Shown here in pieces: positions 5,448 through 13,033 of a DNA stretch of 40,533 bases (positions are counted from its first letter, which is position 1; each line of letters starts with the position of its first letter). The notes beneath the pieces are model-generated. The model was not told the DNA's origin. It searched no databases and saw only the letters and a program-made list of their open reading frames with translations. This stretch comes from Bacteroidota bacterium (lineage in GTDB: Bacteria; Bacteroidota; Ignavibacteria; UBA10030; BY39): the NCBI GenBank assembly GCA_030682385.1, contig JAUXOG010000094.1, positions 1 to 40,533 on the forward strand, in the 5' to 3' direction. The position numbers and the translations under genes are program-made.

Positions 5448-6131
5448 ATGAACATAAAAGTAATAAGCTTTGACGCAGACGATACGCTCTGGGTGAATGA
5501 ACCCTATTTTCAGGAAGTAGAAAAGAAATTTTGCTCACTGATATCGGACTATTTACCAAATGATGAAGTTTCAAAAGAGCTTTTTAAAACTGAAATGGCT
5601 AACCTCCGGCTGTACGGGTACGGCGGAAAGAGCTTTGTCCTCTCAATGATAGAAACTGCGATCAAAGTTTCCGATTCGAAAGTCCAGCCGGAAACCATCA
5701 ATAATATAATTCAACTCGGAAAAGAATTGTTGGATCATCCGGTGAATTTATTGGATGGGGTCGAACATGTTTTGGAAACATTGAAAAAGAAATACAAGCT
5801 CATCATCGCAACGAAAGGAGATTTACTGGATCAGGAACGGAAATTAATTAAATCGGGTTTGAGCAGTTATTTCCACCACATCGAAATAATGAGTGATAAG
5901 AAAGAAGAAAACTATTCCGAACTGATTAATCATCTTGAAATTAAACCGGATGAATTTTTGATGGTAGGGAATTCACTAAAATCGGACATTATTCCGGTTT
6001 TAAATATCGGCGGTAACGGGATACATATTCCATTTCATACAACCTGGCTGCATGAAGTGGCTGATGTAAAAGAAATAACCGGAAAATACAATACCAGCGA
6101 AAAAATTTCTGATATGTTGAATATCTTATGA
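5448..6131 (+). CDS. HAD-superfamily phosphatase
   Basis: 227 residues. Motif I is SFDADDTLW, with Asp9 as nucleophile and Asp11 as acid/base. Motif II is ATKGD (Thr122), and motif IV lies in MVGNSLKSD (Asp180) after a lysine-rich segment (DKKEEN). Between motifs I and II is a helical cap of about 80 residues (C1-type), so a small phosphorylated metabolite is the likely substrate; the sequence does not say which. The stop overlaps the next ATG by 4 bases (ATGA), so the two genes are translationally coupled and probably one operon. Confidence 0.88.
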   Translation: MNIKVISFDADDTLWVNEPYFQEVEKKFCSLISDYLPNDEVSKELFKTEMANLRLYGYGGKSFVLSMIETAIKVSDSKVQPETINNIIQLGKELLDHPVNLLDGVEHVLETLKKKYKLIIATKGDLLDQERKLIKSGLSSYFHHIEIMSDKKEENYSELINHLEIKPDEFLMVGNSLKSDIIPVLNIGGNGIHIPFHTTWLHEVADVKEITGKYNTSEKISDMLNIL

Positions 6132-6748
6132 AAAGAAAAATTGACATTGAGAACTGGGTGCGAAAAGAACACTACTTGTTTTTTAAAACCTACGATGAAC
6201 CCTTCTGGGGCATAACCACAAACGTAGATTGCACAAATGCTTACAAGAAATCGAAAGAACTCAATATCCCTTTTTTTATTTATTATCTCTATCTCTCCTT
6301 AAAATCTGTTAATCATATTGAGGAATTTAAATATCGGATTGAGGGAGAGGAAGTTTTTTGTTATGAAGTTATCCACGCAGCGGCGACTGTTTTAAGAGAT
6401 AACGAAACTTTTGGTTTTTCTTTTATCAAATATAATGAAGACCTTCAGGTATTCACAGAAAATGCGAAGCAGGAAATTGAGAGAGTAAAAAACGATAACC
6501 GGTTGATGCCTTCAGGTTCGGGTGAAAATGTAATTCACTACACTACCATTCCGTGGATAAGTTTTAACGGAGTATCGCATGCCCGTCGCTTCTCGCTGAA
6601 AGATTCCGTCCCTAAAATTGCTTTCGGGAAAATCCACATTGAGAACGGTCAAAAATTATTACCAATCGCTATTCACGCCCACCATGCACTTGTCGATGGT
6701 TTGCATGCGGGGAAATATTTAGAATTATTCCAACAATTGTTAATGTAA
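6128..6748 (+). CDS. CatA-like acetyltransferase (chloramphenicol acetyltransferase fold)
   Basis: 206 residues, slightly short of classical CAT enzymes (~215). The active-site motif HHxxxDG is present as HHALVDG at 185-191; His186 is the expected catalytic base and Asp190 the structural partner. Upstream is PWISFNGVSHARR, the counterpart of the CAT 'SFTSF' region with its hydroxyl residue. N-terminal FFKTYDEPFWGITTNVD also matches the family. CatA-fold proteins acetylate chloramphenicol or other, often unknown, substrates, and many genomic copies are not resistance genes. Coupling to the HAD phosphatase by a 4-base overlap argues for a metabolic role. Confident in family, not in substrate. 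Confidence 0.88.
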   Translation: MKRKIDIENWVRKEHYLFFKTYDEPFWGITTNVDCTNAYKKSKELNIPFFIYYLYLSLKSVNHIEEFKYRIEGEEVFCYEVIHAAATVLRDNETFGFSFIKYNEDLQVFTENAKQEIERVKNDNRLMPSGSGENVIHYTTIPWISFNGVSHARRFSLKDSVPKIAFGKIHIENGQKLLPIAIHAHHALVDGLHAGKYLELFQQLLM

Positions 6749-8114: not shown

Positions 8115-9092
8115 ATGGCAAGAAGAAAGACTAAAAACATAACTGGAATATCTAGAGTTGAAGGATTACCAGTTCACGATTCGTATGTAGCGTTTATTTG
8201 CATTAATTGTAAAGAATTGAATACTATTCATATTGGCAATAATCTAATTGAACAAAAAGAAGCATATGAGAATGCTCTTTGGAAGTGTGAGAATTGTGAT
8301 TTTATCCATTCTAAAAATACAGCCATACCATTTACTAATTGGAAGAAGAACTTTAGGAATGCACATTCATTACAAGCAGAAAGATTTTGGCGTTCATTCT
8401 TTTTAACAAGCACAGAAAATCCTGAAGCCTTTTGGAAAAGGTGCGGAGCATGTGATAGGATCTTAGCTTTTCATTCATTTAGTAAGCATATTGGTTGGGG
8501 TCCATTAGAACGTCAAATGGAATGTAGAGCGTGTAAGGGTGCAATAAATGCCGAATTAAATCCCAAGCGAACTAAACAACAACTTCATGAATCATCTGTG
8601 AGGCGTAGAATCGCTGATATTTTGGTAGCTGAAGAAAATGAGAAAATAGATTTTAAAGAGTTATTTAAACGATTTGATAATAAATGCTTCAAGACAAAGA
8701 AACCTTTAGATATTAACAAACGAAAAACTTGGGCAATTGACCATATATTACCATCGAAGTATCTGTATCCATTGACTGTTTCCAATGCAGCATTATTATC
8801 GAAAGAGGCAAATGATAATAAAAGAGATCAATTGCCAAGTAAATTTTATACAAATAATGAATTAATTGAATTAGCTAAAATTACTGGCGCAGATTTAACT
8901 CTTTTAGTCAGTGAACAACCTATTATTAATTCTAACGTAGATGTTAATAAATGTATATCAAGATTTTTAACTGTTCGTGAAAAATCTAACTTGAAAAAAC
9001 GAATAACTGAATTAAAAAAATTGATAGTTTCTTATGACTTAATCGATAAGTTATCACCAGGAAACAAAAAATTGCTTGGTATCAAAGAGTAG
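8115..9092 (+). CDS. HNH-family nuclease with two zinc ribbons, probable restriction endonuclease
   Basis: 325 residues. Two zinc-ribbon pairs come first: Cys29/Cys32 with Cys58/Cys61, and Cys110/Cys113 with Cys137/Cys140. Then comes an HNH-type beta-beta-alpha-metal fold at about 188-240: the core is WAIDHILP (Asp209, His210), Asn224 in SNAALLS, and Asn233-Asn235-Lys236, so it is an HNN variant of HNH. The gene ends one base from the stop of the convergent DNA methyltransferase, and both are visibly more AT-rich than the flanking genes. That arrangement points to a type II restriction enzyme with its cognate methylase. The recognition site cannot be read from sequence. A homing or phage HNH enzyme is less likely given the neighbour. 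Confidence 0.78.
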   Translation: MARRKTKNITGISRVEGLPVHDSYVAFICINCKELNTIHIGNNLIEQKEAYENALWKCENCDFIHSKNTAIPFTNWKKNFRNAHSLQAERFWRSFFLTSTENPEAFWKRCGACDRILAFHSFSKHIGWGPLERQMECRACKGAINAELNPKRTKQQLHESSVRRRIADILVAEENEKIDFKELFKRFDNKCFKTKKPLDINKRKTWAIDHILPSKYLYPLTVSNAALLSKEANDNKRDQLPSKFYTNNELIELAKITGADLTLLVSEQPIINSNVDVNKCISRFLTVREKSNLKKRITELKKLIVSYDLIDKLSPGNKKLLGIKE

Positions 9093-9093
9093 C

Positions 9094-11154
9094 TTATTGT
9101 TTTTTTAAAAATAGGTACTGATGCACCTTAACAGCTCCCTGATCTTTAATTCCGAATTTTTCATTATCGGTCACATTTTCATTAAAATATCCGATAACAT
9201 TAAAATATTTTTCCGCCATTGGAATCAATAGTTCAGCCATGTTCGCTTTTTTTGAAAAGCCTAAATGCAAAATCATATCACTATTTTCTTTTAACAATTC
9301 AGTCATTGTTTGAAAAAATGAATTATATACTTGAATATTTTGTAATTGTTTTGTCTCTAGGTAGGATTCTTTCTTTATTTGAAAGTCATCTTTGTCCCAC
9401 CCTGAGAACCACATCCTTATCCAATTTGCCATATAAAACCTCGTTGAATCATAGAATGGAGGCGAAGTTATAACTAGATCAATCGATTCTTTCTTGATTT
9501 TTTTGATTAAATCGGTAAAATCTCCCTGAAATATCTCATAATTATTATTACTACAATTATGTTTGTCAATAATTGCTCGGTTAATCTTTCCCTTTAATTT
9601 CTCAATAAGATTTTTATATAAAAATTCACCTTTTGGGGCAAATGGAGTAATCGGATGAGAAGTGCGCGAAAGTGCATAAGGTCTGTTACCATGCAATATA
9701 TGGAGCAAACTTGAAAAAACAAAAGCATAATTCTCATTTTTTATCCCTCTTTGAATAAAATATTTTCTCGCTGAGAGAATTTCTTTGAACGTATCCTCGT
9801 GGTAATACTCTTGAAGTTTTTTATTAAAACCAAAATTACTTTTTTCAAACTCTAAATTAGAAATAACATCATTACCTATAAATTCTCTTAAGGAATCAAT
9901 TATTTTTGAGCATTCCTTGTTATTTACAATTCCTACTTTAGCTAGTGTATTTGCGTAAGCGATTAAACTAAGATCATTCGCATAAACCTTCCTATTTTGT
10001 AAACTTGCTTCAAGAGGAATTGTACCAACGCCAGACAATGGATCAAGTATAATTGAATTTTCATTCGAAAAATATTTTACTAAAAAATGAGCAATTGCGG
10101 GTTTAAGCTTTCCTTGATAAGAGCATAATGAATGCAAATTATTTCCCCAGTTTCTTTTTGCAAATGGATGCTTTCTATAAGGAATTTCATCTCTAAATTT
10201 TTGCCAATTTTTGATTACAAGGTCACCTTCTTTAATATTTCCAATGATATTATTATTATAATTTTGTGAGTGATATTTTGTACCATTCTTTTTAGTAAAC
10301 TGTATTAACCATTGTCCTAATTGCGCGCCATTTTTTGAAAATCTATTTCTAATTTTGGTTTTATTGACCAAATTAAAGCCTTCTTTTTTTGCTATTTCTT
10401 CAAACAAAATATCCGTTGGTACATGAATGTTATTAAAGATTGAATCACCAATATCAAAATAAAAATTACCACCCTCTTCAAGCATAAAATAGAGATTTTT
10501 TAAAACAATCCTCATATCGTAAAAATAATGCTCTATTAATCTTGGAATTCTTTTATCATAATTATTTTTTTCGTGTTGTTCAATTATAGCATTTAGTTGT
10601 TCGAACTCTGTTTTATTTAGTTTTTTCTTTTGACTAACGTTGTTGATCCCAGAGGTTATTGCTTCTTCTCTTAATCTTTTCATTTCCTTTTCTTGATTCA
10701 CCAAATCAAGGAATAAGAGTTCAAGTTTTGTATTTCTAAAATAATTTGTCCCATTTACATAGGGTGGTGATGTAATAATAGTGTCAAAAGTATTATTGTA
10801 TTTATTTTCGAGTCTCTTTGCGTCGTTTGATACAAGATTTGTTTTTCCTATTTTATTTACATCTAAATTCTCCAAATCTTTTAAAGCTGCTCTTGTTTTT
10901 ATCCTGAATAGTTCAAAAACATTTTCATCGATTTCTTGAAATTCAGCATCTCTTTTATATCTTAAGTCGGCTCTGCGTATCATATTTGATTCTTTTACAA
11001 TTATTGAACTGAGTAAAAGCAGTAGCATATTTTTAATATCGCCGCTAAAATTAGATTTTAAAATATTTCTCTTAATAAAAGCAAGTTTATTAAGTATATC
11101 TGGTTTAAAGAATCCCCTCTCTATCATCAAAATTTCATTTTTAGTTAAAGACAC
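9094..11154 (-). CDS. DNA methyltransferase, downstream part of an interrupted two-domain enzyme
   Basis: 686 residues from GTG 11154. It carries TSPPY at 128-132 (catalytic motif IV of the first domain). A second complete domain follows: motif I DPLSGVGT at 371-378, then TSPPF at 563-567. TSPPY/F is typical of amino-methylating enzymes (N4-cytosine, sometimes N6-adenine). The motif I for the first domain is missing here and is found in the gene just upstream (11233-11805). Reading upstream from GTG 11154, the same frame stays open for 26 codons until the TAA that ends that gene. The two ORFs are therefore one frame separated by a single stop. A double methylase would suit an asymmetric recognition site, one domain per strand. 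The start codon is uncertain and has no good ribosome site. Confidence 0.8.
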   Translation of the reverse strand: MSLTKNEILMIERGFFKPDILNKLAFIKRNILKSNFSGDIKNMLLLLLSSIIVKESNMIRRADLRYKRDAEFQEIDENVFELFRIKTRAALKDLENLDVNKIGKTNLVSNDAKRLENKYNNTFDTIITSPPYVNGTNYFRNTKLELLFLDLVNQEKEMKRLREEAITSGINNVSQKKKLNKTEFEQLNAIIEQHEKNNYDKRIPRLIEHYFYDMRIVLKNLYFMLEEGGNFYFDIGDSIFNNIHVPTDILFEEIAKKEGFNLVNKTKIRNRFSKNGAQLGQWLIQFTKKNGTKYHSQNYNNNIIGNIKEGDLVIKNWQKFRDEIPYRKHPFAKRNWGNNLHSLCSYQGKLKPAIAHFLVKYFSNENSIILDPLSGVGTIPLEASLQNRKVYANDLSLIAYANTLAKVGIVNNKECSKIIDSLREFIGNDVISNLEFEKSNFGFNKKLQEYYHEDTFKEILSARKYFIQRGIKNENYAFVFSSLLHILHGNRPYALSRTSHPITPFAPKGEFLYKNLIEKLKGKINRAIIDKHNCSNNNYEIFQGDFTDLIKKIKKESIDLVITSPPFYDSTRFYMANWIRMWFSGWDKDDFQIKKESYLETKQLQNIQVYNSFFQTMTELLKENSDMILHLGFSKKANMAELLIPMAEKYFNVIGYFNENVTDNEKFGIKDQGAVKVHQYLFLKKQ

Positions 11155-11232
11155 TTTACCGTTGTATCCAATAGCATTTGTTTCATTGAAATCTTCTATA
11201 TTTTTTCTATTCTTTGTTATAATTCGCTCTCT

Positions 11233-11805
11233 TTAATTTATAACATCAATTTTGGCTTTAATAATGAATCTCATCAGTGGATTTATTTCAGAATAACCAG
11301 CATTGATTTTATTGATTATGCTCACTAATATAGTTGTCCCTGTCCCAGCAAAAGGATCATATACTGCTTTTGGGTGCAGAACATTATGTTCAAATATTCT
11401 TTCAACAAAATCGTATGAGAAACCTTCTACATAAGGATACCAATTAAAAATACCCTTATCTTTATTATTTCTAAATGTCCCGGAATTTGGACTAATATCA
11501 AAATTATCAGTACTAGAAAGAAAAAGATCAAGCTGATCACGGTTACTGATATTATATTTTGCGAGCTTTTCTCTAATTAAAAATATGCATGTATTACTTA
11601 AAGACCTTTGTTCTTTACGTGAAATCTTCTCGAGATCATCAAATGATCGATTTTCTAACAACATACGCAATTGGGAAGAACTCAAATCCTTAATTATATC
11701 GATAAGTTCATTTTCCTTTTTATTTAATGCAAGTCGTATTAATTTTGTTTCTTTATTGTTATTATATATTTTGGGGTATGATATTGATTTGTAATATTGG
11801 GTCAT
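11233..11805 (-). CDS. DNA methyltransferase, N-terminal part (motif I) cut off by in-frame TAA
   Basis: 190 residues. After a ~115-residue helical N-terminus come FNWYPYVEGFS (a probable motif X-like region, 120-130) and the SAM-binding motif I YDPFAGTGTT at 149-158, then GYSEINPLMRF (motif II, 170-180). The protein stops 10 residues later, before any catalytic motif. The TSPPY that would complete it lies in the next ORF in the same frame, 26 codons past the stop. Alone it cannot methylate. The stop is TAA followed by A, a poor context for readthrough. It may be a nonsense mutation, a sequencing error, or a naturally split enzyme that reassembles. Confidence 0.75.
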   Translation of the reverse strand: MTQYYKSISYPKIYNNNKETKLIRLALNKKENELIDIIKDLSSSQLRMLLENRSFDDLEKISRKEQRSLSNTCIFLIREKLAKYNISNRDQLDLFLSSTDNFDISPNSGTFRNNKDKGIFNWYPYVEGFSYDFVERIFEHNVLHPKAVYDPFAGTGTTILVSIINKINAGYSEINPLMRFIIKAKIDVIN

Positions 11806-11968
11806 CGTATACTCGTATTAAATTACTATACAATGGTAATGAACTTCTTACTAAAAATCAAGTCCCTTTATTACCAGCCAGGCCTCAATAAAATACATCG
11901 GGACAGGCAAACGGACGCCCCCGCAGAGCTGGATAATTCGCTTATCGGCAAAGTCGTTATAAGGATTA

Positions 11969-12121
11969 ATGATAGATCCAGTTGATGATGTCCAGAAAGA
12001 GTATGAAAGAATAGAAAAATTAGGTGTGAAATTTACTATGAAGCCAACCCAAATGGGGACTGCAACTGTTGCTATATTCGATAACACCTGCGGCAACCTG
12101 ATACAGATTGCTCAGATGTGA
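11969..12121 (+). pseudogene. C-terminal stump of a VOC/glyoxalase-family gene
   Basis: A 50-codon open stretch whose translation is the last third of a vicinal-oxygen-chelate domain: VDDVQKEYERIEKLGVKFT, then MGTATVAIFDNTCGN and a final LIQIAQM. The family pattern 'D-xGN-xIxL' with its metal-side strand is clear, but the N-terminal ~80 residues are absent. An in-frame TAA lies at 11960-11962, and the sequence further upstream (about 11880-11960) is a GC-richer stretch with no VOC homology that I can see. The methylase gene starts 164 bases away. The stump therefore looks like the scar left when the restriction-modification module arrived. Confidence 0.7.
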
Positions 12122-12158: not shown

Positions 12159-12392
12159 ATGAACACAATTAGTGTTAGATTGCCGGAGTCGTTACATAAG
12201 AAGGCGCGAGACCTGGCAAAAAAAGAAAATATGTCAATAAACCAATTGTTATCATCTGCATTGGCAGAAAAAATATCCGCCTTGATGACAGAAGAATATA
12301 TAGAGCTACGAGCTGAGCGGGCAAGCAAAAATAAATTTAAAAAAGCTTTGAGTAAAGTTGCTAATATTGAACCGGAAGAATACGATAAATAA
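12159..12392 (+). CDS. ribbon-helix-helix antitoxin-like protein (HicB/CopG type), solo
   Basis: 77 residues. ISVRLPESLHKKARDLAKKENMSINQLLSSALAEKIS is a textbook ribbon-helix-helix DNA-binding domain (residues 4-40). It is followed by a helix, ELRAERASKNKFKKALSKV, and the acidic end EPEEYDK. Such proteins are usually called HicB-like or CopG-like antitoxins. No toxin gene of the HicA or PIN type is adjacent; the next genes are a separate MazEF pair. Immediately after the stop, the same frame continues open for 19 codons, ending with a segment that recurs after mazF. Confidence 0.82.
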   Translation: MNTISVRLPESLHKKARDLAKKENMSINQLLSSALAEKISALMTEEYIELRAERASKNKFKKALSKVANIEPEEYDK

Positions 12393-12410
12393 GCTCAAAA
12401 AGAGTCAAGA

Positions 12411-12452
12411 ATAATCGGAGAGCCGGAAGTATTGTTACTGAATGAAATCTGA
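12411..12452 (+). repeat. coding-like tail repeat, copy 1
   Basis: A 42-base segment that in the frame of the preceding RHH gene reads IIGEPEVLLLNEI and a TGA. It matches 31 of 42 bases with copy 2 at 13037-13078, which in the frame of mazF reads NIGEAEIIFLDEV and TAA. The amino-acid changes are conservative (Pro/Ala, Val/Ile, Leu/Ile, Leu/Phe, Asn/Asp, Ile/Val). The two copies flank the mazEF pair as a direct repeat. Identity of the ancestral gene is unknown. Confidence 0.5.
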
Positions 12453-12508
12453 GGTCAAAACTGACAGGCGTTTTGTTTTTAAAAACGGAAATATTTAAAT
12501 TAAAACAA

Positions 12509-12760
12509 ATGAAAACAAAGGTTATAAAAATAGGAAGCTCGCGAGGTATCAAAATTCCCTCCACTATTCTCGATAGATGCGGTTTGAGAAACGAAGTAGA
12601 GTTTGAAATTATAGAAGATAAAATTATCATTCAATCTGCTCATAAAATAAGAGAGAATTGGGAAATCGCTTTTCAGAAAATGGCGAAAAATCAAGATGAC
12701 GTTCTCTTTGATAAACATATTAACCAAACCACTTGGGACGAAGAAGAGTGGGAATGGTAA
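12509..12760 (+). CDS. mazE: MazE-like antitoxin (AbrB/SpoVT swapped-hairpin fold)
   Basis: 83 residues from ATG 12509. The frame is open further upstream to 12473, but KTKVIKIGSSRGIKIP is the standard MazE/AbrB N-terminus, so the later start is right. The DNA-binding swapped-hairpin barrel covers residues 1-45 (GSSRGIKIPSTILDRCGL, then VEFEIIEDKIIIQ). The acidic Trp-rich tail (TTWDEEEWEW) is the toxin-neutralising segment. It ends exactly where the mazF ATG begins (TAA-ATG), so the pair is translationally coupled. Expected to repress its own promoter, although I see no distinct operator. Confidence 0.9.
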   Translation: MKTKVIKIGSSRGIKIPSTILDRCGLRNEVEFEIIEDKIIIQSAHKIRENWEIAFQKMAKNQDDVLFDKHINQTTWDEEEWEW

Positions 12761-13033
12761 ATGGAATACTCAAGGTTCGAAGTATATCTTGTGAATTTAG
12801 ACCCAACAATTGGGAGTGAGATCAAAAAGACACGTCCGTGTGTCATTATATCTCCTGATGAAATTAATAAGCATATCGCAACAGTAATTATTGCTCCACT
12901 AACGACTAAGCTTAGAAATTATCCAACAAGAGTTTCATGTAGAGTCGAAGGAAAACAAGGGCAAATAGTGTTAGATCAAATTCGACCTGTTGATAAAGTA
13001 TTATCGGTATTGAGTGAGATGTTTGCTCCTTAA
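12761..13033 (+). CDS. mazF: MazF/PemK-family endoribonuclease toxin with apparent internal deletion
   Basis: 90 residues; related MazF proteins of this subgroup have about 105-110. The N-terminus (EVYLVNLDPTIGSEIKKTRPCVIISPDE), the core (IIAPLTTKLRNYPTRV) and GQIVLDQIRPVDK are intact, including the conserved Arg of KTRPCV and the Thr of PLTT. After VDK the usual segment resembling '(R)LVKxLGxLDxxT' is absent, and the chain jumps to VLSVLSEMFAP, the normal C-terminus. An in-frame loss of roughly 15-18 residues is the simplest reading. It removes a strand and turn at the dimer/RNA face, so activity is doubtful. The antitoxin looks complete. Confidence 0.85.
   Translation: MEYSRFEVYLVNLDPTIGSEIKKTRPCVIISPDEINKHIATVIIAPLTTKLRNYPTRVSCRVEGKQGQIVLDQIRPVDKVLSVLSEMFAP

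What the first reader, a model, noticed from the sequence alone, without database searches (positions are those of the whole stretch)
9094..11805. Two-domain DNA methyltransferase cut by one in-frame TAA, paired with a zinc-ribbon HNH nuclease
The two minus-strand ORFs at 11233-11805 and 9094-11154 lie in the same frame. Between them are one TAA (11233-11235) and 26 sense codons before the GTG taken as the second start. Motif I of the first methylase domain (DPFAGTGTT) is before the stop and its catalytic TSPPY is after it; the second domain (DPLSGVGT, TSPPF) is complete. Without the stop the product would be about 903 residues, fitting a double methylase for an asymmetric site. The HNH gene at 8115-9092 ends one base away. 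If the stop is real, either the enzyme is a natural two-subunit methylase or protection of one strand is lost, which would be dangerous with an active nuclease.
Basis: partly seen in the sequence, partly recalled or inferred. Interest (0 to 1): 0.75.

Follow-up and report, generated by a model that had tools for sequence, protein, structure and literature searches.

The report
Restriction methylase cut by private stop
This is an ordinary bacterial DNA-methylating and DNA-cutting gene pair in which one of the two methylase domains is cut by a stop codon that no sampled relative has, so it looks like a recent mutation or a sequence error and not a natural two-part enzyme.

Summary
A TAA at 11233-11235 (minus strand) interrupts an otherwise open frame of 903 codons, between motif I and the TSPPY of the first methylase domain. 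The second domain and the convergent HNH gene are intact. The module is a widespread, presumed Type II restriction-modification pair. Of 93 related loci (a few fetched twice), 64 encode one fused polypeptide and 29 two. In 28 of the 29 the break lies between the domains; the other is a frameshifted viral copy. An HNH gene is near 87 of the 93, convergent in 84. All 93 aligned relatives that cover the TAA site have a sense codon there, so the stop is private and this is not a conserved two-subunit methylase. The window copy shows no other decay: conserved residues are kept on both sides of the stop, and its substitution rate in this domain is not raised against the nearest intact relative. The likeliest reading is a very recent nonsense mutation that disables the first domain while the second may still methylate one strand. 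An assembly error is the main rival. A working split enzyme is not excluded, since the stop falls between two predicted helices, but nothing supports it.

The parts
8115..9092 (+). HNH endonuclease gene, 325 aa, convergent with the methylase; presumed restriction enzyme
   Evidence: Pfam HNH_4 E 9.5e-4, just under its cut-off; nearest solved relatives by sequence and fold are Cas9 HNH domains, weakly; found near the methylase in 87 of 93 relatives
8199..8297 (+). first Cys4 zinc ribbon (C29, C32, C58, C61)
   Evidence: C32, C58, C61 invariant and C29 nearly invariant in 36 homologues
8442..8534 (+). second Cys4 zinc ribbon (C110, C113, C137, C140)
   Evidence: all four invariant in 36 homologues
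8739..8813 (+). HNH catalytic core (D209, H210, N224, N233)
   Evidence: all invariant in 36 homologues
9094..11232 (-). open frame after the stop: second half of methylase domain M1 fused to the complete domain M2 (712 codons plus stop)
11233..11235 (-). private in-frame TAA, codon 191 of 903
   Evidence: sense codon in all 93 aligned relatives that cover the site
11236..11805 (-). first 190 codons: N-terminal region and SAM-binding half of M1
11332..11358 (-). motif I of M1, DPFAGTGTT
   Evidence: sequence; P151, F152, G154, G156 invariant
10759..10773 (-). motif IV of M1, TSPPY
   Evidence: invariant in 45 sequences
10021..10044 (-). motif I of M2, DPLSGVGT
   Evidence: sequence; D588, G592, G594, T595 invariant
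9454..9468 (-). motif IV of M2, TSPPF
   Evidence: invariant in 45 sequences

Best explanation
The locus is a presumed Type II restriction-modification cassette: a fused double amino-methyltransferase (M1-M2, presumably one domain per strand of an asymmetric site) and a convergent zinc-ribbon HNH endonuclease. In this genome M1 has been cut by a very recent nonsense mutation at codon 191. Translation gives a 190-residue M1 stump with the SAM-binding motif but no catalytic motif and, if ribosomes restart, a C-terminal piece with an intact M2. M1 is then inactive, while M2, if translated, methylates only its own strand, which could still shield the host if one-strand methylation blocks the HNH enzyme. 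Shown: the anatomy, the privacy of the stop, the intactness of the rest. Inferred: that the base is real, the restart that makes M2, the asymmetric site, the partial protection, and that the HNH protein is the cognate nuclease.
For: No relative has the stop. Relatives are fused (64) or split between the domains (28), never here. The nearest intact copy, in a genome of the same class, has an open frame across the site. No other decay: conserved residues kept and no rate excess in M1, 12 vs 13 changes before the stop and 20 vs 21 after it. Premature stops are rare in this assembly, 1 of 114 comparable genes, so a random error exactly here is not favoured. No good restart site lies directly after the stop.
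Against: Raw reads were not available, so the base itself is unverified. A host with an intact nuclease gene and a half-lost methylase should be under strain, which makes an error or a still-working methylase more likely than for an ordinary gene. Absence of decay fits error or retained function equally well.
Confidence: 0.58

Rival explanations
1. The stop is a consensus error or a minor-strain base in the assembly; the real gene is an intact fused double methylase.
For: No decay anywhere else in M1, M2 or HNH; private to this one sequence; fragmented assembly of 140 contigs.
Against: It would have to be a substitution, since the frame is kept. In-frame stops are rare in the sampled part of the assembly: 1 of 114 comparable own genes.
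Confidence: 0.27
2. M1 works as a split enzyme: the 190-residue piece and a restarted C piece (second half of M1 plus M2) assemble into an active methylase.
For: The stop falls exactly between predicted helices 176-190 and 192-198. Residues on both sides are still conserved. Fragment complementation is documented for m5C methylases such as M.SssI, and M.AquI and M.EcoHK31I are naturally two-part (PMC3404938).
Against: No relative has this split. No convincing start or ribosome site after the stop. The documented cases are m5C enzymes split elsewhere.
Confidence: 0.1
3. The stop is read through, or recoded, at some rate, so some full-length protein is made.
For: The frame continues open for 712 codons with conserved content.
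Against: TAA is an ordinary stop here: the same gene ends in TAA at 9094-9096. Known bacterial recoding uses mostly TGA or TAG (general knowledge). No relative has the codon; the alternative frames are closed.
Confidence: 0.03

Closest known systems
Psychrobacter plasmid pA39BP3 methylase pair with convergent HNH gene (L005; annotated 'hypothetical protein' / 'DNA methyltransferase')
   Same: Same two methylase domains (about 32% M1 and 48% M2 identity) in the same order, and an HNH gene convergent with them
   Different: M1 and M2 are two genes overlapping by 4 bases, broken between the domains; M1 has no internal stop; the HNH protein is longer (471 aa) and only 34% identical over its core
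Type IIA/IIS systems with two methylases for an asymmetric site and an HNH nuclease (MnlI, HpyAV, MboII, as reviewed in PMC4081073)
   Same: HNH nuclease with Cys4 zinc elements; one or two methylases, each for one strand
MhoVII of Mycoplasma hominis, two methylases fused in one protein (PMC12898733)
   Same: Fused M1-M2 that methylates the two strands of a non-palindromic site
   Different: Its domains belong to the YhdJ and D12 branches according to its abstract; no sequence comparison was made here
M.AquI and M.EcoHK31I, naturally two-part methylases (PMC3404938)
   Same: One methylase made of two polypeptides, which is what the split reading would require
   Different: m5C enzymes split in or after the variable region, not between the SAM-binding and catalytic motifs of an amino-methylase; here the split is not conserved

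Membership tests
Type II restriction-modification system with double amino-methyltransferase | two methyltransferase domains, each with a SAM-binding motif I and a catalytic (S/D)PP(Y/F) motif | tested here: met
   motifs present and conserved in 45 sequences; in the window the M1 motifs are separated by the stop
Type II restriction-modification system with double amino-methyltransferase | a nuclease gene next to the methylase gene, conserved across relatives | tested here: met
   HNH gene near 87 of 93 relatives; in the phylum the same five genomes carry both
Type II restriction-modification system with double amino-methyltransferase | nuclease cuts unmethylated sites and methylation blocks it | not testable with these tools
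   needs purified proteins
Type II restriction-modification system with double amino-methyltransferase | asymmetric recognition site, one domain per strand | not testable with these tools
   needs a methylome or cleavage assay
alpha-order amino-methyltransferases | motif I precedes motif IV with a long insert between them | tested here: met
   I at 150-158 and IV at 345-349 in M1; 588-595 and 780-784 in M2; helical insert in the model
Naturally split (two-subunit) methyltransferases | the split is conserved among relatives, with a proper start for the second part | tested here: not met
   no stop in 93 relatives covering the site; no convincing start after the stop
Cas9 | large RNA-guided protein with RuvC and HNH domains | tested here: not met
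   325 aa, only the HNH stretch matches; 28.4 bits against a cut-off of 100 for TIGR01865

The most novel reading that the evidence does not exclude
A newly arisen functional split: M1 reassembles from an N piece (up to the helix after motif II) and a C piece that is the rest of M1 fused to all of M2, an amino-methylase divided between its SAM-binding and catalytic halves.
Probability: 0.08. Interest if true: 0.45.

Novelty: new member of a known kind. Interest (0 to 1): 0.2.

Why it matters
As it stands it is a useful correction: the split is not a conserved two-subunit design. If the stop is real, this genome is a natural case of a restriction system that has just lost one strand's methylase beside an intact nuclease gene, a state that selfish-gene models of restriction systems predict to be dangerous, and its methylome would show whether one-strand methylation suffices. 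The wider family (fused or paired methylases with a convergent, Cas9-like HNH nuclease, in many phyla) could not be matched here to any characterised enzyme.

Tried and rejected
Conserved split: rejected, no relative has it. Frameshift bypass: other frames closed. Ongoing decay of M1 or HNH: no significant excess of changes. Plasmid and phage collections gave only one close relative. Single-sequence queries of genome contigs and viral contigs found nothing; the two-row M2 alignment then gave 80 kept loci and 7 loci. Solved structures: no close relative of either protein, and the fold search with the 903-residue model gave only generic methyltransferase matches. Flanking repeats around the cassette: nothing convincing. 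Literature searches found no paper on this exact family.

Full report
Observation. On the minus strand a frame runs from ATG 11805 to TAA 9094-9096 and is interrupted once, by TAA 11233-11235. There are 190 codons before the stop and 712 after it. Upstream lie DPFAGTGTT and the helix after motif II; downstream lie TSPPY and the complete second domain (DPLSGVGT, TSPPF). The HNH gene 8115-9092 is on the plus strand, so the genes converge with one base between their stop codons.

One enzyme, not two. PADLOC methylase model PDLC03389 (445 positions) is matched at 46-123 by the upstream piece and at 168-444 by the downstream piece, so the stop lies inside one domain. An alignment with the Psychrobacter plasmid pair runs straight across the stop.

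Relatives. The M2 alignment A3 brought in 80 loci from genome contigs (114 matched), 7 from viral contigs and several whole-genome hits. Record titles span Bacteroidota, Ignavibacteria, Nitrospirae, Gamma- and Alphaproteobacteria, Actinobacteria, Cyanobacteria, candidate phyla and a euryarchaeote. Of 93 loci with both domains, 64 are one frame (usually 870-930 codons) and 29 are two. In 28 of the 29 the break comes after residue 482, mostly at 500-510, which is the domain boundary; the other, viral contig L014, is frameshifted near residue 380. A few of the 93 are the same locus fetched through two collections. HNH genes lie near 87 of the 93, convergent in 84 and on the same strand in 3.

The site itself. 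In an alignment of 96 relatives three do not reach the site, and all 93 others have a sense codon there (this set includes three more distant single methylases). The residue varies widely (L, S, A, M, E, T and others), so the position tolerates substitution. No relative has a stop or a gene break at this point.

Age of the stop. At M1 columns conserved in 90% of relatives the window never deviates before the stop; after the stop it deviates at nine columns, the same nine as its nearest intact relative in genome G176. With an outgroup, M1 changed 12 times in the window against 13 in G176 before the stop, and 20 against 21 after it. M2 changed less in the window, and HNH slightly but not significantly more. 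The stop is therefore very recent, an error, or compatible with function; sequence alone cannot choose. As a check on assembly quality, 617 kb of the window's genome was compared with 1.2 Mb of a same-genus genome: 1 of 114 comparable genes carries an in-frame stop in the window's genome. False stops are not common, but one cannot be excluded.

Structure. An AlphaFold2 model of the read-through frame (mean pLDDT 85) places residue 191 between helices 176-190 and 192-198, just ahead of a helical insert that separates the SAM-binding half from the catalytic half. A break there need not destroy either piece, so fragment complementation, known for m5C methylases (PMC3404938), cannot be excluded. 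Against it stand the lack of any relative with this split and the lack of a good start near the stop: neither GTG 11154 nor ATG 11127 has a convincing ribosome site, although this group of bacteria may depend little on such sites.

Nuclease. The HNH protein has two Cys4 zinc ribbons and a D-H...N...N core, invariant or nearly so in 36 relatives. By sequence and fold its nearest solved relatives are Cas9 HNH domains, weakly. That it is the restriction enzyme is inferred from genomic association only. In 395 genomes of the phylum the M2 and HNH searches picked the same five genomes strongly; a sixth, weak M2 hit lacks the HNH gene.

Location. The cassette sits in a variable spot. After the same DUF1028 gene, the same-genus genome G001 has an unrelated methyltransferase gene before the shared tail of a probable VOC-like gene, and no cassette. 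HNH identity to G176, a genome of another order (86%), exceeds that of release factor 2 (68%), which fits horizontal movement of the cassette, although strong constraint on the HNH protein is an alternative.

Conclusion. This is an ordinary, widespread, presumed Type II restriction-modification module with a private nonsense codon in its first methylase domain. Most likely it is a recent loss of M1 with M2 intact; next an assembly error; and with low probability a new functional split.

Noticed in passing
window 12159-13033 (+): A HicB-like ORF (12159-12392) and a PemK/MazF-like toxin gene (12761-13033, Pfam 81.6 bits) with a small upstream partner (12473-12760) lie beside the restriction cassette.
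   Followed up: partly
window about 11972-12119 (+): The tail of a probable VOC/glyoxalase-like gene (named from memory, not by a profile) lies just beyond the methylase start; the same tail, 79% identical in DNA, is at the matching place in the same-genus genome G001, where a different methyltransferase gene stands instead of the cassette.
   Followed up: partly
window 11866-11924: A 59-base stretch is repeated at 86% identity near an end of contig C36 of the same genome.
   Followed up: no
L014 4607-5807: A viral-contig copy of the methylase has a frameshift in M1 near residue 380, an independent break at another place.
   Followed up: no
G000 contig C14 5279-7074 (L002, L003): The same genome carries two further, distantly related methylase frames (482 and 491 codons) side by side, probably another modification system.
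   Followed up: no
window 8115-11805 versus L103: In the same cassette the HNH protein is 86% identical to its G176 relative but the methylase only 65-74%, with similar third-position divergence: the nuclease is under stronger constraint than the methylase, and is more alike than release factor 2 (68%).
   Followed up: partly
window 6128-6748 (+): A gene of the chloramphenicol-acetyltransferase family (Pfam CAT, E 2.9e-31) lies upstream of the DUF1028 gene.
   Followed up: no
L027 7017-9381, L029 7370-9787: Acinetobacter and Alkanindiges relatives carry two HNH-like stretches beyond the methylase pair.
   Followed up: no
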